Below are positions 40,892 to 51,619 of a stretch of 51,619 nt of DNA, one piece after another. The DNA lies in NCBI GenBank assembly GCA_017856435.1, contig JAFMFB010000015.1, positions 1 through 51,619 of the forward strand, written 5' to 3'. Numbering within the stretch: the first letter of the stretch is position 1; every line of letters begins with the position of its first letter. The DNA is from Burkholderiaceae bacterium. GTDB taxonomy: Bacteria; Pseudomonadota; Gammaproteobacteria; Burkholderiales; Burkholderiaceae_C. The translations under genes and the position numbers were made by a program. Below the pieces are notes generated by a model, which saw nothing but the letters and a program-made list of their open reading frames with translations, was not told the origin of the DNA and ran no database searches.

Positions 40892-42106
40892 ATGCTGTTA
40901 CCTGACTGGGCTGTGCTCAACGCGCTGATCGACTGGCTGGCCCACGGAACCTGGCAACTGGCCTGGTGGCAGATCGTGCTCTTCACCCTGGCCATGACCC
41001 ATGTCACCATTGCCAGCGTCACCATCTTTTTGCACCGTTGCCAGGCCCACCGCGCCCTGGACCTGCACCCCATTCCCTCGCACTTCTTTCGCTTCTGGCT
41101 GTGGCTAACCACCGGTCAGGTCACCAAGGAGTGGGCCTCGATTCACCGCAAGCACCACGCCAAGTGCGAGCAGGAAGGTGACCCCCACAGCCCGCAAATC
41201 TTTGGCATCAAGAAAGTGTTCTGGCAAGGCGCCGAACTCTACCGGGCCGAATCCAAAAACAAGGAAACCATGGCCCGTTATGGCCACGGCACCCCGGACG
41301 ACTGGATCGAGCGCAACCTCTACACCCGCTACTCCTGGCAGGGCGTGGGGCTGATGATGATTATTGACCTCACCCTGTTTGGTGCAGCCGGCCTGGCGGT
41401 CTGGGCAGTGCAGATGGCCTGGATTCCGGTGACCGCTGCCGGCGTCATCAACGGCTTTGGCCACTGGTGGGGTTACCGCAACTTTGAGGCGCCCGACGCC
41501 AGCACCAATCTCAGCCCCTGGGGTATCCTGATTGGCGGTGAAGAGTTGCACAACAACCACCACACCTACCCCACCTCGGCCAAGCTCTCGGTCAAGCCCT
41601 ATGAGTTTGACATTGGCTGGCTCTACATCAGCGCGCTCAGTGCCCTGGGCCTGGCCCGGGTGAAGAAGACCCCGCCCAAGCTGGCCTTCGGCAGCATCAA
41701 GCCGGTGGCCGACGACAAAACCCTCGAAGCCCTGATCGCGCACCGCTACGAAGTGATGGCCGGCTATGCCCTGAGCATGCGCCAGGCCCTGCAACAAGAA
41801 CTGACCCAGCTCAAAGCCCTCAGCGCCGAAGCCAGCATGCTGCAGGCCGCCAACCGCTGGCTGCATCGTGATACCGAAAAAGTGCCGATGACCGCGGTGG
41901 CCGAGCTTGATAAGGCGCGCGCGGCCTCACCGGTGCTGGACCAGATGGTAACCATGCGTGAAGAGCTGCGCCAGCTCTGGCTCAACACCTCGCGCAGCCG
42001 CGAGCAGCTGCTGGCCGACCTGCAGGCCTGGTGCCATCGGGCTGAGGAAAGCGGCATTGCCGTGCTGCGCGAGTTCTCGCTCAAGCTGCGGGCTGCCAAA
42101 GCCTGA
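40892..42106 (+). CDS. acyl-CoA / acyl-lipid desaturase (delta-9 type)
   Basis: 404 residues. The three histidine boxes of membrane di-iron desaturases are present: HRCQAHR near residue 48, HRKHH near 86 and HNNHH near 227. Hydrophobic segments at the N-terminus and around 150-190 anchor it in the membrane. The C-terminal ~110 residues are helical and hydrophilic, typical of proteobacterial delta-9 desaturases. It introduces a double bond into fatty acyl chains to adjust membrane fluidity. The gene has a structured leader and ends at a strong terminator. Its codons ~171-346 are duplicated, with the central 507 bp identical, 9 kb downstream. Confidence 0.9.
   Translation: MLLPDWAVLNALIDWLAHGTWQLAWWQIVLFTLAMTHVTIASVTIFLHRCQAHRALDLHPIPSHFFRFWLWLTTGQVTKEWASIHRKHHAKCEQEGDPHSPQIFGIKKVFWQGAELYRAESKNKETMARYGHGTPDDWIERNLYTRYSWQGVGLMMIIDLTLFGAAGLAVWAVQMAWIPVTAAGVINGFGHWWGYRNFEAPDASTNLSPWGILIGGEELHNNHHTYPTSAKLSVKPYEFDIGWLYISALSALGLARVKKTPPKLAFGSIKPVADDKTLEALIAHRYEVMAGYALSMRQALQQELTQLKALSAEASMLQAANRWLHRDTEKVPMTAVAELDKARAASPVLDQMVTMREELRQLWLNTSRSREQLLADLQAWCHRAEESGIAVLREFSLKLRAAKA
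41404..41930 (+). repeat. direct repeat, left copy (inside the desaturase gene)
   Basis: This segment matches 50423-50949 in direct orientation at an offset of 9019 bp. The core 41419-41925 (507 bp) is identical, including third codon positions. Two mismatches occur in the left margin (41407, 41418) and one in the right (41926), beyond which the sequences are unrelated. This copy is in the intact gene. Confidence 0.97.
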
Positions 42107-42142
42107 GCCTAACCACACCCCTGCCCAGCCCTTTTCTTGGAT

Positions 42143-42169
42143 GGCCCGCTTCGGCGGGCCTTTTCTTTG
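42143..42169 (+). terminator. intrinsic terminator after the desaturase gene
   Basis: GGCCCGC (42143-42149), a TTCG tetraloop and GCGGGCC (42154-42160) form a perfect 7-bp stem with a very stable loop, followed by TTTTCTTTG. It lies 36 bp past the desaturase stop. Confidence 0.92.
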
Positions 42170-42484
42170 CTGCCCCGCCCCGCTTGGACGAACCTTTTCA
42201 CGCCTGACCCTTCCTCACCTTCTGCCTGCACTTGCCACCTTGAAGCGGGCCCGGTCTGCATACCGTCTGCGTCATACCATCAGGCCCCAGGGCAGATGCG
42301 AAGCACCAACCTGTGCTGGATAGTCCAGATCAATCTCTGCATCCTGTCAGCCTGGTCCATTCGTCCTGTTCGCTCGAACTATCTGGACACTTTGGTCATT
42401 GAAGCTTTTCAATACCCTCTGCCGGGATGCCCCCTAAGGTTTTACATCAAAAATTCTCTTCTGACTCGCTTGCAAAAGCCTTGC
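42170..42484. other. long intergenic stretch without a convincing gene
   Basis: The 461-bp gap between desaturase and anthranilate operon begins with the terminator and ends with the operon promoter. Between them, one plus-strand frame stays open (42137-42490) but starts before the terminator stem, reads through it and has no recognisable domain, so it is not called. An 8-bp inverted repeat, GTCCAGAT near 42324 and ATCTGGAC about 50 bp later, is the only structure noted. The stretch is more AT-rich towards its right end. Confidence 0.5.
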
Positions 42485-42513
42485 TTGTAGCGCCCGAAAA
42501 AATTGTTTATAGT
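42485..42513 (+). promoter_or_regulatory. predicted sigma-70 promoter of the anthranilate operon
   Basis: A -35 like TTGTAG (42485-42490) and a -10 TATAGT (42508-42513) are separated by exactly 17 bp. The -10 lies in the left arm of a large palindrome, and the predicted start of transcription (about 42520) falls on its centre, leaving a leader of roughly 48 nt before the GTG start. Confidence 0.6.
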
Positions 42514-42533
42514 TAAATTATTTAAAAATAAAC
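42505..42533 (+). promoter_or_regulatory. 29-bp near-perfect palindrome, candidate MarR operator
   Basis: The sequence GTTTAT-AG-TTAAAT-T-ATTTAA-AA-ATAAAC is symmetric about base 42519. Twelve of fourteen position pairs are complementary, and only the AG/AA pair of positions breaks symmetry. It overlaps the predicted -10 and start site, the usual place for a repressor. The operon's third gene encodes a MarR-family protein, and MarR dimers bind AT-rich palindromes of this kind. Confidence 0.7.
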
Positions 42534-42567
42534 CTTTTGAGGGCTCACTGGCCTGAAAGGACTCCAA

Positions 42568-44922
42568 GTGAAGATCGTTTGTATCGGTGGCGGCCCTGCT
42601 GGCCTATATCTGGGCCTTTTGATGAAAAAGCTGGATGCGGCGCACGATGTGACAGTGGTTGAACGAAATCAACCATACGACACTTTTGGCTGGGGCGTGG
42701 TGTTTTCTGATGCAACCATGGACAACATGCGCCAGTGGGACCCGCAAACTGCCGGTGAAATACAGGAATCTTTCAACCACTGGGACGATATCGAGTTGCT
42801 GTTCAAGGGCCGTACCATCCGCTCAGGCGGGCACGGATTTGTGGGGATCGGTCGCAAAAAGTTGCTCAATATCCTGCAGGCACGTTGCGAGCGCCTGGGC
42901 GTGCAACTGGTGTTTGAGACTGAGGCCAATTCTGACCTGGACTACCCTGATGCCGACCTGATCATCGCCTGCGACGGCATCAACTCACGCATCAGAGGCA
43001 AATATGCTGAAGTGTTCAAGCCCGACATCATCACAAGGCCAAACCGCTACATCTGGCTTGGGACGAACCGTTTGTACGACGCCTTCACCTTTGATTTCCA
43101 GAAAACCGACAAGGGATGGTTTCAGGCCCATATCTACAAGTTCGATGAGAACACCACCACATTCATCGTGGAATGCCCTGAAGGTGTCTGGAAAGCCAGT
43201 GGGTTGGATCAGGCCGACCAGGAGCAATCCATTACCTTTTGCGAAAACCTCTTCAAGGATACCTTGCAGGGTCACAAGTTGATGACCAATGCGCGCCACT
43301 TGCGTGGTTCGGCCTGGTTGAACTTCCAGCGCGTGGTGTGCGAACAGTGGTGGCTTAAAAACGCCAACGGAAGCCATGTGGTGTTGATGGGCGATGCTGT
43401 TCACACAGCTCACTTCGCCATTGGGTCCGGTACCAAGCTGGCCATTGAGGATGCAATTGAACTCACACGCCAGTTCCAACTTCTGGGTGATCGCCCCGAA
43501 AAGCTGCCCAAGGTGTTGACGGCTTACCAGGAACTGCGTCGGGTAGAGACTCTGCGTCTGCAAAATGCGGCATGGAACGCCATGGAATGGTTCGAAGTGT
43601 GTGGCGAGCGCTACTGCGATCAACTGGAGCCAGAGCAGTTCATGTACTCGATGCTCACACGCAGCCAGCGCATCAGCCACGAGAACCTGCGCCTGCGCGA
43701 CCAGCACTGGCTCGAAGGGTATGAACGCTGGTTTGCCGAGCGTGCTGGCCTGACTGGCGCAGAGCTGGCCGCCGCCAAACCCGTGCCACCCATGTTCGCG
43801 CCCTACCGTGTGCGCGCAGTGAAGCTCAAGAACCGCGTCGTGGTGTCGCCCATGGCGCAGTACAGCGCCGTGGATGGTCTGGTTGGGAACTACCACCTGG
43901 TTCATCTAGGCGCACGTGCCATGGGTGGAGCTGGCTTGGTGTTCACCGAGATGATCTGCACCAGTGCATATGCACGCATCACGCCCGGCTGCCCCGGCCT
44001 GTGGACCGATGAACAGGGCGACGCCTGGCAACACATTGTGGATTGGGTACATACCTATACCGATGCCAAGATCGCAGCTCAAATTGGCCATGCGGGCGCC
44101 AAAGGCTCGACCCGACGTGCCTGGGAGGGCATTGACAAACCCCTGCTGCCCAGCGATACCGAGGAAAACTGGCCTCTGGTCAGTGCGTCGCCACAACAAT
44201 ATCTGAAAGGGGAAAGTCAGGTCTCGCAAGCCATGACGCGGGCTGACATGGACAAGGTCAGGGAGGATTTCGTGGCTGCCACCCGGCGGGCCGCGATGGC
44301 CGGTTTCGACTGGCTGGAATTGCACTGTGCGCACGGTTATCTGCTTTCAAGCTTTATTTCCCCCCTGACCAACCGGCGTAGCGATGAATATGGCGGCAGC
44401 CTGAGCAATCGGCTGCGCTACCCGCTAGAGGTATTTACCGCTGTGCGCAACACCTGGCCGGCAGATAAACCCATATCGGTCAGAATTTCAGCCCACGACT
44501 GGGTGGAAGGCGGCATCACCCCGGCTGACGCAGTGACCATAGCTCAGGCGTTCAAGCTTGCCGGCGCGGACATGATCGACTGTTCCTCCGGACAGGTCAG
44601 CAAGCAGGAAAAAATCACTTTCGGCCGTATGTTCCAGACACCCTTTGCCGACCGCGTGCGTCAGATGGCTGACATACCGACCATTGCCGTGGGGGCCATC
44701 AGCGAAGCTGATCATGTCAACAGCATCATCGCTGCCGGGCGTGCGGACCTGTGCGCAGTAGCAAGGCCCCACCTGGCCAACCCGGCCTGGACCTTGACCG
44801 AAGCGGCAAAGATTGGTTACACCGCGATCGAATGGCCGAAGCAATATCGTTCTGCCAAGATGCAGATGGAAGCCAATTTCGCTCGCGAAAAGACCATGCA
44901 AGCTGCTGGTACGAAAGGCTGA
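42568..44922 (+). CDS. 2-aminobenzoyl-CoA monooxygenase/reductase (salicylyl-CoA 5-hydroxylase family)
   Basis: 784 residues, a natural fusion. Residues 1 to ~385 form an FAD-dependent aromatic hydroxylase: [10 protein letters not shown] at 7-16, and the second FAD motif [18 protein letters not shown] at about 271-288. Residues ~400-775 form an Old Yellow Enzyme-type NADH:flavin reductase ([12 protein letters not shown]; catalytic [16 protein letters not shown] near 585; [10 protein letters not shown]). The size and order match Azoarcus 2-aminobenzoyl-CoA monooxygenase/reductase, which hydroxylates and then reduces the ring of anthraniloyl-CoA; salicylyl-CoA 5-hydroxylases share the fold. The start is GTG with AAAGGA 6 nt upstream. 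First gene of the operon; the SDR starts 4 bp after its stop. Confidence 0.87.
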
Positions 44923-44925
44923 GTA

Positions 44926-45711
44926 ATGACTGATTCGATCCAGGCCCTGCAAGGCCGTCACGCGGTGGTCACCGGTGCGTCGCGTGGCATTGGCGCGGCA
45001 ATTGCAGAACAACTTGCCGCTCGAGGTGCGCGATTGACGCTGATGGGACGCCAGCTCTCCACCTTGCAGGCTCTGGCCGACACACTGCCAAGCTCGGCCA
45101 TGGCCCGTGCTGTAGTCTGCGATGTGACCGACCCGGCTGTCGTCAATGCTGCCTTTGCAGACGCACGCCAAGCCATGGGCCCAGTGGACATCCTTGTGAA
45201 CAACGCGGGACAGGCCGAGAGTGCACCACTGACCCGAACGGATGATGAGTTATGGGCACGCATGCTGGCTGTCAACCTGAGCGGCACGTTCTTTTGCACA
45301 CGAGCTGCGCTGCCTGACATGATCAGCCAGGGCTGGGGGCGCGTGTGCAACATCGCGAGCACGGCAGGACAACGCGGCTACGCATACGTTGCAGCCTATT
45401 CGGCCGCCAAGCATGGCGTGATCGGGCTGACGCGATCTCTCGCGCTGGAAGTCGCGCGCAAGGCGATCACTGTGAATTCCATTTGCCCGGGCTATACCGA
45501 ATCCGACCTGCTGACGCAAAGCCTGGAGAACGTCATGACCAAGACGGGACGAACCCTGGAACAGGCCCGCGCAGATTTCGCACGTCAAAATCCGCAAGGC
45601 CGACTGGTGCAGCCTATAGAGGTGGCCGATGCAGTCCTGTGGCTTTGCTCGCCGGCAGCCGCATCAATCCATGGGCAGTCAATCTCGGTGAGCGGTGGAG
45701 AAGTGATGTGA
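44926..45711 (+). CDS. SDR-family 3-hydroxyacyl-CoA dehydrogenase-like protein
   Basis: 261 residues, classical SDR. The cofactor motif TGASRGIG is at 16-23 and NNAG at 92-95. The catalytic set is S145, Y158 and K162 in YSAAK. C-terminal [12 protein letters not shown] fits 3-oxoacyl / 3-hydroxyacyl-CoA dehydrogenases. In this operon it would oxidise or reduce a hydroxy intermediate during beta-oxidation-like breakdown of the dearomatised ring. It shares one base with the following MarR start (TGATG), so they are translationally coupled. Confidence 0.85.
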
Positions 45712-46250
45712 TGCCAGGGCTTGCTCCAACACCCGCGCCCGTGCTTGATGACGCGCAGATTGGCCGCGAAGCTCAAGTGGCCAGAGAGGACCATCTTGCC
45801 ATTCGGCTGTGGCTGCGCCTGCTGTCATGCAGCACGCAGATTGAGCAGGATATCCGTACCCGTCTGCGACTGCAGTTTGGAACCACGTTGCCCAGGTTTG
45901 ATTACCTTGCACAGCTGGAACGCAACCCCGACGGTCTGCGCATGAACGTCCTGACACGTTACCTGATGGTCACCGGTGGTAATGTGACCGGCCTGACGGA
46001 CCAGTTGGTGGCTGATGGCTGGGTCGAACGCCTGCCCGATCCTCAAGACCGGCGTGCAACGATCGTTCGTTTGAGCGCGATAGGCAGAAGAGAATTTTCC
46101 AGCATGGCCCAGGCCCATGAGGCCTGGCTCAGCGCCATGTTTGAAGAGCTGGACGGCTCCTTCAAAGAAAACCTCTACACCATGCTGGGACAACTGCGAG
46201 TGCACCTGACGCAAATCACGCCCACAACACCCCACCCACCAAAGCCATGA
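45711..46250 (+). CDS. MarR-family transcriptional regulator
   Basis: 179 residues starting at the ATG that overlaps the SDR stop. A dimerisation helix region (about 20-50, with [20 protein letters not shown]) leads to a winged helix-turn-helix: [50 protein letters not shown], and the wing [17 protein letters not shown]. The DxRxxxVxLT-like wing is diagnostic. MarR proteins of aromatic-CoA operons typically release DNA on binding the aryl-CoA substrate. Lying inside the operon, it is well placed to regulate it through the 29-bp palindrome. Confidence 0.9.
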
Positions 46251-46266
46251 ACCTGAAAGCAACCCC

Positions 46267-47118
46267 ATGAGCAAAACCATTGATCCCACGCTGCTGGCGG
46301 GCAACCGCCGACCCATGGCCAATTACCAGGCCTCCCATTTCCTGTGGTCAGTGCAGGAGGGCGTGGGCACCATCACCCTCAACCGTCCTGAGCGCAAAAA
46401 CCCTCTGACCTTTGACAGCTACGCCGAACTGCGTGACCTGTTCCACCAGCTCAAATTGGCAGATGATGTGAAAACTGTGGTCCTGACTGGCGCGGGTGGC
46501 AATTTTTGCTCGGGCGGCGATGTGCATGAAATCATTGGACCGCTGATTGACTTGCCGATGCCCGAATTGCTGATGTTCACCCGCATGACGGGTGAGCTGG
46601 TGCAGATGATGCGCGCTTGCCCTCAACCCATTGTTGCGGCGGTGGACGGGGTATGTGCTGGAGCAGGTGCCATCATGGCCATGGCCGCCGACCTGCGCCT
46701 GGGCACGCCCAGAAGCAAGACTGCCTTTCTGTTTAACCGGGTTGGGCTGGCAGGTTGCGACATGGGTGCATGTGCCATCCTGCCTCGTATCGTCGGGCAG
46801 GGACGCGCCAGCGAACTGCTCTACACCGGACGCGTGCTGGGTGGAGAAGAAGGCGAGCGCTGGGGGTTTTTCAACCGACTTTGCTCGCCCGAAGAGTTGT
46901 TGAGCGAGGCGCTCAAACTGGCAGCGGGTCTGACGGCAGGCCCCTCTTTTGCCAACGGCATCACCAAAACCATGCTGCACCAGGAATGGTCCATGACGAT
47001 TGAGCAGGCCATTGAGGCCGAGGCTCAGGCCCAGGCGATCTGCATGATGACGCAAGACTATTCCCGTGCTTACCATGCTTTTGTGTCCAAGCAAAAGCCG
47101 GTTTTTCAGGGAAACTGA
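46267..47118 (+). CDS. enoyl-CoA hydratase/isomerase family protein
   Basis: 283 residues, crotonase fold. The oxyanion-hole motifs are [11 protein letters not shown] (about 79-89) and [21 protein letters not shown] (about 122-142). The glutamate that follows in typical hydratases (PEVKLGLIPG region) is not conserved; [19 protein letters not shown] takes its place, with an Asp nearby. Chemistry other than simple hydration, for instance ring hydrolysis or isomerisation, should be considered. The operon position and known anthranilate-CoA clusters support a role in ring cleavage or beta-oxidation. An internal ATG at 46315 is an alternative start. Confidence 0.83.
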
Positions 47119-47120
47119 GT

Positions 47121-48293
47121 ATGACCGATCAGACCTATCTGCAATGGCCCTTCTTTGAGCCTCGCCATGTCGAGCTGGCCCAGGCGCTGGACGATTGGGC
47201 CGCCAAACATGTGCCGCAAGGACATGGCCCGGACGTAGATGCCGACTGTGTGGGCTTGGTGCGCTCCCTGGGCGCAGCCGGCTGGTTACGACACGCGGTG
47301 GCTGGGTCCGATGTAGGGGGTGCCGGCCAGGCCATTGACACTCGCGCCATCTGCCTGATCCGCGAAACCCTGGCTCGTCACAACGGCCTGGCCGACTATG
47401 CCTTTGCCATGCAGGGTCTGGGCTCGGGCGCCATCTCATTGCACGGAACCGCTGAGCAACGCCAGCGATATCTGCCCCGCGTGGCAAGCGGCCAAGCCAT
47501 CGCGGCCTTTGCCCTGTCCGAGCCCAACGCAGGCTCCGATGTCGCAGCCATGGCATGCTCGGCCCGCCAGGAAGGCGAGCACTACATTCTGGACGGAGAA
47601 AAAACCTGGATTTCCAACGGCGGCATTGCAAACTTTTATGTGGTGTTTGCCCGTACGGGAGAGGCACCGGGGTCCCGCGGCATTTCTGCCTTCATTGTGG
47701 ATGCGAACACTACCGGCTTCGAGATTGCCGAGCGCATTGAAGTGATCGCACCTCACCCCCTGGCGCGACTTCGTTTCACCAACTGCCGAATTCCGGTCAG
47801 TCAGCGTGTCGCCCCTGCTGGCGAGGGCTTCAAGGTGGCCATGCGTACGCTGGATGTATTTCGGACTTCAGTAGCGGCGGCCTCGCTTGGCTTTGCCCGC
47901 CGAGCTCTGGATGAGGCTTTGCACCGCGCCACCACCCGTCAAATGTTCAAGGGTGTATTGGCTGATCTCCAGCTCACCCAGGCCAAGCTGGCTCAAATGG
48001 CCACGGCCATCGACAGCGCTGCGTTGTTGACTTACCGGGCCGCGTGGCAGCGTGACCAAGGCCTGAGCGTGACACGCGAAGCCGCCATGGCCAAGATGGT
48101 TGCCACCGAAAATGCCCAGCAGGTCATCGACGCTGCGGTCCAGCTTTGGGGAGGGCTGGGCGTTGTCAGCGAGATGCCTGTCGAACGTCTGTACCGCGAA
48201 ATCCGGGCGCTGCGAATTTACGAGGGCGCGACCGAGGTCCAGCAGCTCATCATTGCGCGTGAATTGCTCAAATTGATGGGCACACCTGACTGA
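47121..48293 (+). CDS. acyl-CoA dehydrogenase
   Basis: 390 residues with a complete set of motifs: [15 protein letters not shown] and [22 protein letters not shown] (flavin contacts), and the C-terminal [19 protein letters not shown] with the expected catalytic Glu in YEGATE. It starts two bases after the hydratase stop. It would introduce a double bond in a cyclic or open-chain CoA thioester downstream of the monooxygenase/reductase. Unlike the 36-38 kb pair it looks like a normal homo-oligomeric enzyme. Confidence 0.88.
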
Positions 48294-48323
48294 CAACCCT
48301 CCAGCTGAACCAGGATAAGCGTC

Positions 48324-49952
48324 ATGCCCACTGCACACATCGACACCTTTGCCCACGATCACCTGCCTCCCCCGGAGCTGCAGCCGGATTACCTTTTCGA
48401 GTTGCCAGAGCTGCAATTTCCAGAGCAGCTCAACTGCGCCGACGAGTTGCTGGACCGGCACCTGGCCAATGGCCATGGTGATCGGGTGTGCATCCGGGCG
48501 CCAGGACTGAGCTGGACCTACGCCGACTTGCAGGACAAATCCAACCGGATTGCCAACGTGCTGGTACACAACATGGGCCTGGTGCCTGGCAATCGCGTGC
48601 TTCTTCGGGCGCCCAACAGCCCGATGCTGGTGGCCTGCTGGTTTGCCGTCATAAAAGCGGGAGGCATCGCGGTAGCCACCATGCCACTGCTACGCGCCAA
48701 GGAGCTGAAATCCATTGTGGAGATCGGCCAGGTCAGATTTGCCCTGTGCGATGCAGCGCTGGCGCAGGAGCTGCAAGAAACTGCCCTGCAGACACCGCTG
48801 ATGCACCATATCTGCCTGTTCAACCACCAAGGCTCTGACAGTCTTGAAGCCCTGATGGCGTTGGCCTCGCCGCAGTTTGAGAATGTCAAGACTGCCAGCG
48901 ACGACACCTGCCTGTTCGCTTTCACATCGGGCACCACTGGCGTGCCCAAGGCCACCATGCATTTCCATCGGGACATCATGGCTGTCTGTCTTTGCTGGCC
49001 GCCACACGTCCTGCGCGCCACGGCTGATGATGTATTCATCGGCAGTCCACCGCTGGCCTTCACTTTTGGCCTGGGTGGGCTGGTGCTGTTCCCCATGGCC
49101 ATCGGGGCATCTACAGTATTGCTGGAAAAAGCCAGTCCGGCACAGTTGATCGACGCTATCCGCGATTTCGGTGCCACCGTTCTGTTCACCGCACCAACCT
49201 CTTACCGCGCAATTGCCCCCAGGGGCAATGAGCTGTCCAACACCCCCTTGCGCAAATGTGTGTCTGCAGGCGAGGCTTTACCTGCATCGACCCGTGCGCT
49301 GTGGAAAGAAGCGACTGGCCTTGAACTTATAGATGGCATTGGAGCCACTGAAATGCTTCACATCTTCATCTCGCATGATGAAGAGAACGTTCGCGCTGGC
49401 GCCACTGGTAAGGCAGTACCCGGCTATCACGCCAAGGTCATCGACGACGAAGGTCATGAGGTGGCGCCGGGAACCTTGGGTAGATTGGCTGTGCAGGGGC
49501 CCACTGGTTGCCGCTATCTGGCCGATGCGCGTCAGAAGAACTATGTCAAAAACGGCTGGAATCTCACGGGAGACGCCTACATCATGGACGCTGATGGCTA
49601 TTTCTTCTATCAGGCACGTACCGACGATTTGATCATTTCAGCCGGTTACAACATCGCCGCCCCTGAGGTAGAGGAAGCTTTGATGCAACATCCTGCCGTA
49701 GCGGAATGTGCCGTAGTGGGCATCCCTGATCCTGAGCGGGGCCAGATTGTCAAAGCCTTTGTGGTGCTTCGACCAGATCAGCAGCAGGATGAAGCCATGG
49801 TGAAAACCTTGCAGGACTTTGTCAAACAGACCGTGGCACCCTACAAATACCCTCGTGCCATCACCTTTGTCGATCAACTGCCGCGCACCCAGACCGGCAA
49901 ACTCCAGCGCTTCAGGCTGCAGGAGCCAATGCTTGGCAGATCCGCCAACTGA
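48324..49952 (+). CDS. 2-aminobenzoate-CoA ligase / benzoate-CoA ligase family
   Basis: 542 residues, ANL superfamily. The P-loop-like FTSGTTGVPKATMHFH lies near residue 200, GIGATEMLHIFISH near 341, the hinge TGDAYIMDADGYFFYQARTDD near 415-435, and the C-terminal catalytic Lys in TQTGKLQRF near 530. The MLHIF segment is typical of benzoate and 2-aminobenzoate ligases. It activates the aromatic acid to its CoA thioester with ATP, the entry step of the pathway. The presence of the aminobenzoyl-CoA monooxygenase suggests anthranilate, but salicylate or benzoate analogues cannot be excluded. Confidence 0.88.
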   Translation: MPTAHIDTFAHDHLPPPELQPDYLFELPELQFPEQLNCADELLDRHLANGHGDRVCIRAPGLSWTYADLQDKSNRIANVLVHNMGLVPGNRVLLRAPNSPMLVACWFAVIKAGGIAVATMPLLRAKELKSIVEIGQVRFALCDAALAQELQETALQTPLMHHICLFNHQGSDSLEALMALASPQFENVKTASDDTCLFAFTSGTTGVPKATMHFHRDIMAVCLCWPPHVLRATADDVFIGSPPLAFTFGLGGLVLFPMAIGASTVLLEKASPAQLIDAIRDFGATVLFTAPTSYRAIAPRGNELSNTPLRKCVSAGEALPASTRALWKEATGLELIDGIGATEMLHIFISHDEENVRAGATGKAVPGYHAKVIDDEGHEVAPGTLGRLAVQGPTGCRYLADARQKNYVKNGWNLTGDAYIMDADGYFFYQARTDDLIISAGYNIAAPEVEEALMQHPAVAECAVVGIPDPERGQIVKAFVVLRPDQQQDEAMVKTLQDFVKQTVAPYKYPRAITFVDQLPRTQTGKLQRFRLQEPMLGRSAN

Positions 49953-49985
49953 ACCACCTTCCACTGACAAAGACGGAGATTGTTG

Positions 49986-50378
49986 ATGCAAGTCTTACTT
50001 CCCCCCGGTTGGCCCCGACCCAAAGGCTATGCCAACGGCGTGACCGCTCGCGGGCGCATGGTTTTTGTGGCCGGCACGATCGGCTGGGACGAGCACGGCC
50101 AGTTTCATTCGGACGATATGGCGATCCAGGCACGGCAAGCCTTGCAGAACATCGTCACCGTTCTGACCGAGGGTGGCGCGAAGCCTGAGCACATAGTGCG
50201 CATGACATGGTATGTCACAAGCAAACGCGAATACCTGGAAAAATCCAGAGAAATCGGACAAGCTTTCAAGACCCATATTGGCTGCTTCAACGCGGCCATG
50301 ACGGCCGTGGAGGTCAGTGCACTCATCGAAGACCGTGCCAAGGTGGAAATCGAGGTCACCGCCGTGATACCGGATTGA
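49986..50378 (+). CDS. RidA-fold protein lacking the catalytic arginine
   Basis: 130 residues from ATG 49986 with GGAG 7 nt upstream; TTG codons at 49980 and 49983 are poorer starts. The YjgF/YER057c/UK114 fold is clear: MVFVAGTIGWDEHG, DMAIQARQALQNIVTVL, MTWYVTSKREYL and AAMTAVEVSAL...KVEIEVTAV. In classical RidA the segment reads ARSxVEV and the Arg holds the imine carboxylate; here it is M105. It therefore belongs with the arginine-less Rid groups. As the last gene of an aminobenzoyl-CoA operon it may act on an enamine or imine thioester during nitrogen removal, but the reaction is unproven. Confidence 0.85.
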   Translation: MQVLLPPGWPRPKGYANGVTARGRMVFVAGTIGWDEHGQFHSDDMAIQARQALQNIVTVLTEGGAKPEHIVRMTWYVTSKREYLEKSREIGQAFKTHIGCFNAAMTAVEVSALIEDRAKVEIEVTAVIPD

Positions 50379-50422
50379 TCTGAACGAGACAAATCTGGAT
50401 TCAGAGTCAGTATGCGGTGAAT

Positions 50423-50949
50423 GGCGGTGCAGATGGTCTGGATTCCGGTGACCGCTGCCGGCGTCATCAACGGCTTTGGCCACTGGTGGGGTTACCGCAA
50501 CTTTGAGGCGCCCGACGCCAGCACCAATCTCAGCCCCTGGGGTATCCTGATTGGCGGTGAAGAGTTGCACAACAACCACCACACCTACCCCACCTCGGCC
50601 AAGCTCTCGGTCAAGCCCTATGAGTTTGACATTGGCTGGCTCTACATCAGCGCGCTCAGTGCCCTGGGCCTGGCCCGGGTGAAGAAGACCCCGCCCAAGC
50701 TGGCCTTCGGCAGCATCAAGCCGGTGGCCGACGACAAAACCCTCGAAGCCCTGATCGCGCACCGCTACGAAGTGATGGCCGGCTATGCCCTGAGCATGCG
50801 CCAGGCCCTGCAACAAGAACTGACCCAGCTCAAAGCCCTCAGCGCCGAAGCCAGCATGCTGCAGGCCGCCAACCGCTGGCTGCATCGTGATACCGAAAAA
50901 GTGCCGATGACCGCGGTGGCCGAGCTTGATAAGGCGCGCGCGGCATCAC
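50423..50949 (+). pseudogene. internal fragment of the desaturase gene (right direct-repeat copy)
   Basis: This stretch repeats codons ~171-346 of the desaturase at 40892, with 507 bp (50438-50944) identical. It contains only the third histidine box (HNNHH) and lacks the first two, the N-terminal membrane region and the C-terminus, so it cannot encode an active enzyme. The reading frame continues past the junction into a non-homologous, PAS-encoding sequence in a different frame. The left junction has a 10-bp shared GTGCAGATGG just before the identity begins. No terminal repeats or insertion sequence border it. Confidence 0.93.
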
Positions 50950-51619
50950 GGCGGCGCAGTTCGACGGCACCTTGGCCGGGATGGAGACATTCACCCACCC
51001 GGAGGACTTCGCACGGGTGGTGGCGGCCTTTGCTGACACGACCGCGGGCGGGCTGGTGGACATCGAGTTTCGGGTGCAGCGGCCCGACGGCGAGGTGCGC
51101 TGGGTGCACGGCCGCGGGCGGCTGGAGACCGACGCCGCGGGCCGGCCCGTGCGCATTAGCGGCACGGAGGTGGACATCACCGAGCGCAAGGCGGCGAGCG
51201 AGTTGTTGCGCCAGAGCGAGACCAAGTTCCGCGACCTGTGGGAGAACAGCCGCGATGCGCAGGTGCTGTGCCTGCCGCCCGACTGGAAATTCAGCTCTGG
51301 CAATGCCGCAGCCGTAGCGCTCTATGGCGCGCGCGACCCTCAGCATCTGGCGCAGTGCACACCGAACGAGTTGACTCCGGAGCTGCAGCCGGACGGCACG
51401 CTATCGGCCGAGAAAACACCCTACTACCTTGAAATTGCCTTGCGCGAGGGCAGCACCTTCTTTGAGTGCACCCACCAGCGTCTTGATGGCACTCTGATAT
51501 TGGTCGAAATCTCGCTTAACCGAATCACGATCGACAACCTGACCGGCGTGCAGGCCACCATCCGCGACATCACCGAGCGCAAGCTGCTCGAGCAACGCGT
51601 GGCCCAGCGCACCGCGGAG
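50950..51619 (+). CDS. 5'-truncated PAS-domain sensor protein, runs off the window
   Basis: The frame beginning at the junction stays open to the last base (about 223 codons); the first in-frame ATG is 50981. A TAA at 50930-50932 in the same frame, inside the desaturase fragment, rules out an in-frame fusion. The start is the second half of a PAS_3-type domain (FTHPEDFARV, EFRVQRPDGEVRWVHGRGRL) with its PAC end VDITERK. A second PAS domain follows (KFRDLWENSRDAQVL to DITERKLLEQRVAQRT). Such arrays usually sit in sensor histidine kinases or diguanylate cyclases, whose output domain would lie beyond the window. Confidence 0.8.

What the first reader, a model, noticed from the sequence alone, without database searches (positions are those of the whole stretch)
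41404..50949. Anthranilate operon bracketed by identical 507-bp direct repeats of a desaturase fragment
41419-41925 and 50438-50944 are base-for-base identical in my line-by-line comparison, including silent positions, at an offset of 9019 bp. The left copy is in an intact gene; the right copy is an internal fragment fused to unrelated sequence. This is either a very recent duplication linked to acquisition of the operon, or a chimeric join made during assembly. If real, recombination between the repeats would excise the whole operon as a 9-kb circle.
Basis: seen in the sequence. Interest (0 to 1): 0.7.

Follow-up and report, generated by a model that had tools for sequence, protein, structure and literature searches.

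The report
Duplicated desaturase fragment beside anthranilate operon
A 507-base piece of a fatty-acid desaturase gene appears twice, letter for letter, on either side of a set of genes that probably breaks down anthranilate; it looks like a recent copy-and-paste accident at a DNA breakpoint, or a join made in sequencing, and not a mobile element.

Summary
The window is one whole contig of a 97-contig draft, and the right copy ends 675 bp before the contig end. The right copy is an internal piece of a DesA-type desaturase, placed between the RidA side of the operon and a PAS-domain gene without its 5' part. At the left junction the flanks match at 13 of 15 with 10 consecutive bases, rare between random positions (9 of 2,000,000), as template switching would leave. 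No other of the 97 contigs shares either junction flank, although this assembly leaves 55-bp overlaps elsewhere. Best reading: a real, very recent microhomology-mediated templated insertion (0.5); a library or assembly chimera is nearly as likely (0.4). A link to operon acquisition is not supported: 0 of 80 related operon loci show the desaturase in the flanks held. Recombination could release a 9,019-bp circle but would replace the end of the desaturase. Interest is low.

The parts
40892..42106 (+). intact DesA-family fatty acid desaturase gene (404 aa), source of the repeat
   Evidence: NF049918 645.7 bits, cut-off 400; orthologues next to rsmB in relatives
41404..41418 (+). 15 bp before the left copy; 13 of 15 match the 15 bp before the right copy (10 consecutive)
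41419..41925 (+). left copy of the 507-bp exact direct repeat, inside the desaturase (about residues 177-345)
42107..42567 (+). spacer between desaturase and operon; not repeated on the right side; its short ORFs were not matched to families
42568..44922 (+). 2-aminobenzoyl-CoA monooxygenase/reductase type gene (NCBI model name: bifunctional salicylyl-CoA 5-hydroxylase/oxidoreductase)
   Evidence: NF006101 1344.3 bits, cut-off 1078
44926..45711 (+). SDR-family dehydrogenase
45708..46250 (+). MarR-family regulator
   Evidence: PF12802/PF01047
46267..47118 (+). enoyl-CoA hydratase family
   Evidence: NF006107 494.6 bits, cut-off 330
47121..48293 (+). acyl-CoA dehydrogenase
48324..49952 (+). benzoate-CoA ligase family (probable 2-aminobenzoate-CoA ligase)
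   Evidence: TIGR02262 392.2 bits, cut-off 375.25
49986..50378 (+). RidA family gene, last gene of the operon
   Evidence: PF01042 82.2 bits, cut-off 27.3
50379..50422 (+). end of the operon side; no match in any other of the 97 contigs, only 14-bp matches in the loci compared
50423..50437 (+). microhomology stretch at the left junction of the right copy
50438..50944 (+). right copy of the 507-bp repeat, desaturase fragment
   Evidence: NF049918 profile positions 154-324 of 385
50945..51619 (+). PAS-domain gene without its 5' part; in its frame a TAA at 50930-50932 lies inside the repeat
   Evidence: PF08447, TIGR00229; stop
51565..51619 (.). contig end: 55 bp shared exactly with the ends of contigs C96 and C32 (assembly-graph overlap into a shared region downstream)

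Best explanation
The right copy is real DNA, a templated insertion. A broken or stalled end just downstream of RidA annealed at a 10-bp microhomology to the desaturase gene 9 kb away, copied 507 bp of it in the same orientation, and was then joined to a PAS-domain gene whose 5' part is missing. The event is so recent that no substitution has accumulated. It is a by-product of a rearrangement, not a mobile element, and probably has no function of its own. Shown: exact identity, the microhomology, truncation on both sides, no competing continuation among the held contigs. Inferred: the direction and mechanism of copying, and that it happened in the cell and not in the tube.
For: Exact 507-bp identity. 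Left-junction microhomology: 13 of 15 with 10 consecutive bases; 9 of 2,000,000 random position pairs reach 13 of 15. The inserted piece comes from nearby sequence, 9 kb away on the same contig. The assembly leaves 55-bp overlaps at branch points (13 inter-contig overlaps of exactly 55 bp, 12 of them at the very end of both contigs), yet neither the operon-side flank nor the PAS-side flank of the right copy matches any other of the 97 contigs. The PAS piece shares its last 55 bp with C32 and C96 of the same draft, so it probably belongs to this genome. The neighbourhood has been rearranged: argG lies close downstream of the desaturase in 5 of 8 relative loci compared, but in this genome argG abuts a yqeY-like gene, a join seen in 0 of 25 other genomes of the genus (in 7 of these 25 only the yqeY side was found). 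Passages of PMC3161906 report that complex events and microhomology junctions occur in E. coli amplification, and liken them to human events in which nearby sequence is inserted at the junction.
Against: The right copy ends only 675 bp from the contig end. Nowhere else in the 1.14 Mb sampled did the assembly place a non-tandem exact repeat longer than 55 bp twice. Template switching during amplification leaves the same signature. The left junction was not found in viral contigs and the right one in no fetched locus other than the window's own. Microhomology at the right junction could not be judged. Reads and coverage were not available. The shortest contig seen is 2,532 bases, so shorter pieces that might hold competing continuations are not held. 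At another contig end (C4/C89) the same assembly holds two alternative joins, so mixed strains or false extensions do occur in it. The place downstream of the desaturase varies among other relatives too, so the argG break need not belong to this event.
Confidence: 0.5

Rival explanations
1. Artefact: a chimeric DNA molecule (template switching in amplification or library making) or a false path in a k=55 assembly graph joined the operon end, a desaturase fragment and a PAS-gene fragment at the end of the contig.
For: Right copy 675 bp from the contig end; two genes broken at one place; the only non-tandem exact repeat over 55 bp placed twice in the sampled 44% of the genome; contig C4 begins with a 516-bp piece that competes with C89 for the same neighbour, and C89 carries the order seen in relatives.
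Against: Two true continuations would both have to be lost while two false ones were kept; no held contig carries either lost continuation. The shared stretch at the left junction (10 bp exact) is far shorter than the 55-bp overlap, so a simple graph mis-path is unlikely. The source lies 9 kb away on the same contig, which random chimeras would rarely hit.
Confidence: 0.4
2. Single-crossover integration: a circle carrying the 3' part of the desaturase plus the operon recombined into the chromosomal desaturase, leaving direct repeats; a later deletion fused the right copy to the PAS gene.
For: Explains an intact left gene and direct repeats flanking the operon; the operon has lower G+C than its surroundings and its full-length first enzyme is found in 1 of 24 other genomes of the genus searched; [quoted passage not shown]
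Against: Needs a second event; the right copy is followed neither by the desaturase 3' end nor by argG; identity to the nearest relative shows no clear change of origin at the repeat boundary; no desaturase match in the flanks held of 80 related operon loci.
Confidence: 0.06
3. Older fragment kept identical by gene conversion from the intact gene.
For: Imperfect homology just outside the exact tract on the left (3 differences over 16 bp, counted on the flanks printed) and a weak resemblance on the right (TCAC).
Against: The homologous flanks are far too short for a converted tract that would end at both edges of the fragment; the 10-bp stretch is explained by microhomology.
Confidence: 0.03

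Closest known systems
Microhomology-mediated template switching (MMBIR / long-distance template switch) junctions, studied in E. coli (PMC3161906, passages seen)
   Same: complex join with a short microhomology; a local stretch copied into the junction (in that paper's passages, inserted nearby sequence is described for human non-recurrent events, and complexity and microhomology for E. coli)
   Different: not shown to be in vivo here; microhomology at the second junction cannot be seen because the uninterrupted PAS gene is unknown; no stress experiment
Aerobic 2-aminobenzoyl-CoA (anthranilate) catabolic route as in Azoarcus evansii (PMC4539516, passages seen)
   Same: CoA ligase, flavin monooxygenase/reductase, beta-oxidation type enzymes; a RidA match in 64 of 80 related loci
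   Different: here beside a desaturase gene and followed by a desaturase fragment; substrate not tested; the NCBI model name is salicylyl-CoA 5-hydroxylase
Homology-facilitated illegitimate recombination in natural transformation (PMC6382021, passages seen; the two-sided picture is partly recalled)
   Same: joins DNA through homology at one place and microhomology at another
   Different: does not by itself produce a second, doubly truncated copy of the anchor

Membership tests
Templated insertion by template switching (MMBIR-like) | inserted sequence copied from a nearby locus | tested here: met
   507 of 507 identical to a locus 9,019 bp away, direct orientation
Templated insertion by template switching (MMBIR-like) | microhomology at the junctions | tested here: inconclusive
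   left junction met (10 bp exact); right junction cannot be judged because the intact PAS gene is not known
Templated insertion by template switching (MMBIR-like) | event present in living cells | not testable with these tools
   no reads or coverage available
Mobile or integrative element with flanking direct repeats | integrase, transposase or relaxase gene inside the bracketed stretch | tested here: not met
   the eight genes from the desaturase to RidA match enzymes and one MarR regulator. The desaturase tail does pass the Pfam cut-off for the ISL3 transposase model (PF01610, 27.2 against 23 bits), which NCBIfam explains as a tail shared by DesA and ISL3 proteins (NF049919). The short ORFs of the spacer were not scanned
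Mobile or integrative element with flanking direct repeats | repeat at the element ends in related copies | tested here: not met
   0 of 80 related loci has a desaturase match in the flanks held; exact direct repeats of 60 bp or more lying over 500 bp apart occur in 2 of 80, and the first pair printed for each lies upstream of the operon
2-aminobenzoyl-CoA pathway cluster | ligase and bifunctional monooxygenase/reductase together with beta-oxidation type genes | tested here: met
   48 of 80 related loci have matches (E 1e-10, paralogues not excluded) to the first enzyme, hydratase, dehydrogenase, ligase and RidA
2-aminobenzoyl-CoA pathway cluster | activity on anthranilate | not testable with these tools
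   needs an assay; the model name (salicylyl-CoA 5-hydroxylase) does not settle anthranilate against salicylate

The most novel reading that the evidence does not exclude
The genome of this lineage is being reworked by a burst of template switching: a 507-bp templated insertion, a broken desaturase-argG neighbourhood and three PAS-type sensor genes that run into one identical stretch would be products of the same recent instability, caught before any substitution.
Probability: 0.08. Interest if true: 0.5.

Novelty: new member of a known kind. Interest (0 to 1): 0.22.

Why it matters
If real, it is a fresh, mutation-free example of a templated insertion at a microhomology junction in an environmental bacterium, and it makes a catabolic operon deletable as a 9,019-bp circle at the cost of the desaturase 3' end. 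If not, it is a warning that contig ends of short-k drafts can carry convincing gene fragments. Either way it does not change what is known about anthranilate degradation.

Tried and rejected
Rejected: the repeat as an att-like or transposon boundary (no mobility gene among the eight genes from desaturase to RidA apart from the ISL3-like desaturase tail; no desaturase match beside the operon in 80 related loci). Rejected: a plasmid-borne unit close to this operon (14 plasmid records matched, best cover 28% of the query; desaturase repeat matched in 5 records at 60-80%). Led nowhere: looking for an intact orthologue of the PAS piece (at E 1e-30 or better only this genome among 299 of the family, own included; in the genus 19 of 26 genomes, own included, have some match at E 0.001 or better, but outside this genome the best is 78% over 129 bases); the left contig end in other contigs (none); G010's stretch downstream of its desaturase in this genome (only short or weak matches); the exact left junction in viral contigs (0) and the exact right junction in fetched loci (4 of 249, all four being copies of the window itself); a paper on assembler k-mer settings (0 found). 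Paper listings were seen as listings only and not used. An early idea that the right copy is a diverged desaturase of another strain was dropped as the leading one, because 507 identical bases beside 3 differences in 16 do not fit one uniform divergence.

A count of repeats in the enlarged sample was swamped by contigs that read as N; it was repeated without N. One fetched stretch of contig C54 (30000-40000) was left out of the repeat count; the first 20 kb of that contig was used. In one search only 8 of 53 candidate places of this genome were scored, so the two junction flanks were searched again on their own with all candidates scored (3 of 3, 11 of 11); the result stood.

Full report
Observation. 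The two stretches are identical over 507 bp with no mismatch and cannot be extended exactly on either side; no other exact direct repeat of 40 bp or more exists in the window. The left copy lies in an intact 404-aa desaturase (NF049918, 645.7 bits against a cut-off of 400). The right copy covers profile positions 154-324 of 385 of the same family, so it is an internal fragment.

Context. The window is a whole contig, C23 of a 97-contig, 2,565,767-base draft, 98.87% complete with 0 contamination as given by the tool. The right copy ends 675 bp before the contig end. The last 55 bp of the contig are identical to the end of C96 and, reversed, to the start of C32. In the sampled part of the genome (84 of 97 contigs; the window whole and at most the first 20 kb of the others; 1,138,779 non-N bases) there are 13 inter-contig exact matches of exactly 55 bp, 12 of them at the very ends of both contigs; one more 55-bp match is a tandem repeat inside C60, and three of 41-49 bp join C17 and C34. 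The only exact repeats longer than 55 bp are the 507-bp pair and one overlapping tandem array of 98 bp in C29. This is what a de Bruijn assembly with k=55 leaves behind (that SPAdes-type assemblers do this is recalled). Such an assembly normally breaks at repeats, so a repeat carried through twice is unusual in it.

Junctions. Left of the right copy, GGCGGTGCAGATGGT faces GGCAGTGCAGATGGC: 13 of 15, with 10 consecutive identical bases, then the exact tract. Of 2,000,000 random pairs of window positions (pairs under 50 bp apart skipped) 9 reach 13 of 15 and 8 share a 10-mer at that place. Desaturases of the genus have similar letters at this place, so a short diverged homologue was considered, but microhomology is simpler. 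Right of the right copy, 4 bases (TCAC) match after one mismatch; 1130 of 200,000 random pairs do as well, so this is weak. The sequence then reads as a PAS domain (PF08447, TIGR00229) whose start is missing; in its frame a stop, TAA, lies at 50930-50932 inside the repeat. No orthologue was found: at E 1e-30 or better only the window itself matched among 299 genomes of the family; in the genus the best match outside this genome is 78% over 129 bases.

Is there a competing continuation? Searches of all 97 contigs with the left flank (50360-50445) and with the right flank (50935-51015) found only the window itself, with all candidate places scored; searches with the longer pieces agree and did find the 55-bp overlaps at the contig end. 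This speaks for the join being the main one in the data, with the caveat that short contigs are not held (shortest seen 2,532 bases). Against it: C4 begins with a 516-bp piece, then meets a 55-mer that is also the end of C89, with about four differences in the 23 bases just before it (78 bp at 94.9%); C89 has the gene order of relatives. So alternative joins at contig ends do occur here.

Surroundings. purN, rsmB and the desaturase are neighbours in most relative loci long enough to show them. Downstream, 5 of 8 relative loci compared have argG and ppnP close to the desaturase; in this genome ppnP and argG lie on C4 and argG abuts a yqeY-like gene (named by eye), a join seen in 0 of 25 other genomes of the genus; in 7 of these 25 only the yqeY side was found at all. 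The stretch after the desaturase also differs between other relatives, so it is a place of frequent change, and the break need not date from the same event as the repeat.

The operon. First enzyme NF006101 (1344.3 bits, cut-off 1078), benzoate-CoA ligase family TIGR02262, hydratase NF006107, SDR, acyl-CoA dehydrogenase, MarR and RidA fit the 2-aminobenzoyl-CoA route described in passages of PMC4539516, though the NCBI name of the first enzyme points to salicylyl-CoA. Among 24 other genomes of the genus searched, one (G019) has a full-length first enzyme at 79%; its contig length (77,022) equals that of DDPM01000004.1, Hylemonella sp. UBA2468, so the genus is probably Hylemonella (inference). 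G019 has its desaturase on another contig. Of the 80 related loci kept (of 581 found), 64 have a RidA match, 48 have matches to the first enzyme, hydratase, dehydrogenase, ligase and RidA together, and 0 have a desaturase match in the flanks held, which are cut short in many. The operon is lower in G+C than its surroundings. It was probably acquired, but nothing ties the repeat to that.

Mechanism. An end downstream of RidA that anneals at a 10-bp microhomology in the desaturase, copies 507 bp and then joins elsewhere would give this anatomy. Passages of PMC3161906 describe nearby sequence inserted at junctions in human non-recurrent events, report complex events and microhomology junctions in E. 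coli as similar, and give microhomology of 3 to 30 bp for one class of E. coli events. The same signature arises in amplification chimeras.

Excision. Recombination between the copies would release a circle of 9,019 bp. What is left would read the desaturase start into the sequence now after the right copy: about 468 aa instead of 404, with the last 60 or so residues replaced (arithmetic from the coordinates). So excision would damage the desaturase, which argues against a selected excision device.

Noticed in passing
51565-51619; contigs C32 start and C96 end of the same genome: Three PAS-type sensor genes with different upstream parts run into the same 55 bp and presumably an identical stretch beyond, which suggests recent sharing of one downstream module; the shared part was not found in the held contigs.
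   Followed up: partly
40892-42106: The desaturase carries a C-terminal tail that matches ISL3 transposase models (NF049919, PF01610).
   Followed up: no
L173 1-571 and L201 7421-7475: Two different upstream sequences lead into the same ppnP-like gene; one keeps the order of relatives, the other brings the end of an ATPase-like gene (names by eye). Sign of mixed strains, a second copy or a false extension.
   Followed up: partly
L173 947-2833: argG abuts a yqeY-like gene, a join seen in none of 25 other genomes of the genus (only one side found in 7 of them); in 5 of 8 relative loci compared argG lies close to the desaturase.
   Followed up: yes
41781-41925: This part of the desaturase is much less conserved in relatives (57-70% identity) than the parts on either side.
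   Followed up: no
L145, about 10.0-10.4 kb (224-595 downstream of the desaturase match, minus strand): In one relative a short gene that looks like a RidA-family member (by eye, not searched) follows the desaturase, a curious parallel to the RidA gene beside the desaturase fragment here.
   Followed up: no
2-91: The contig begins at a tRNA-Ser gene on the minus strand, and its first 75 bases match no other contig.
   Followed up: no
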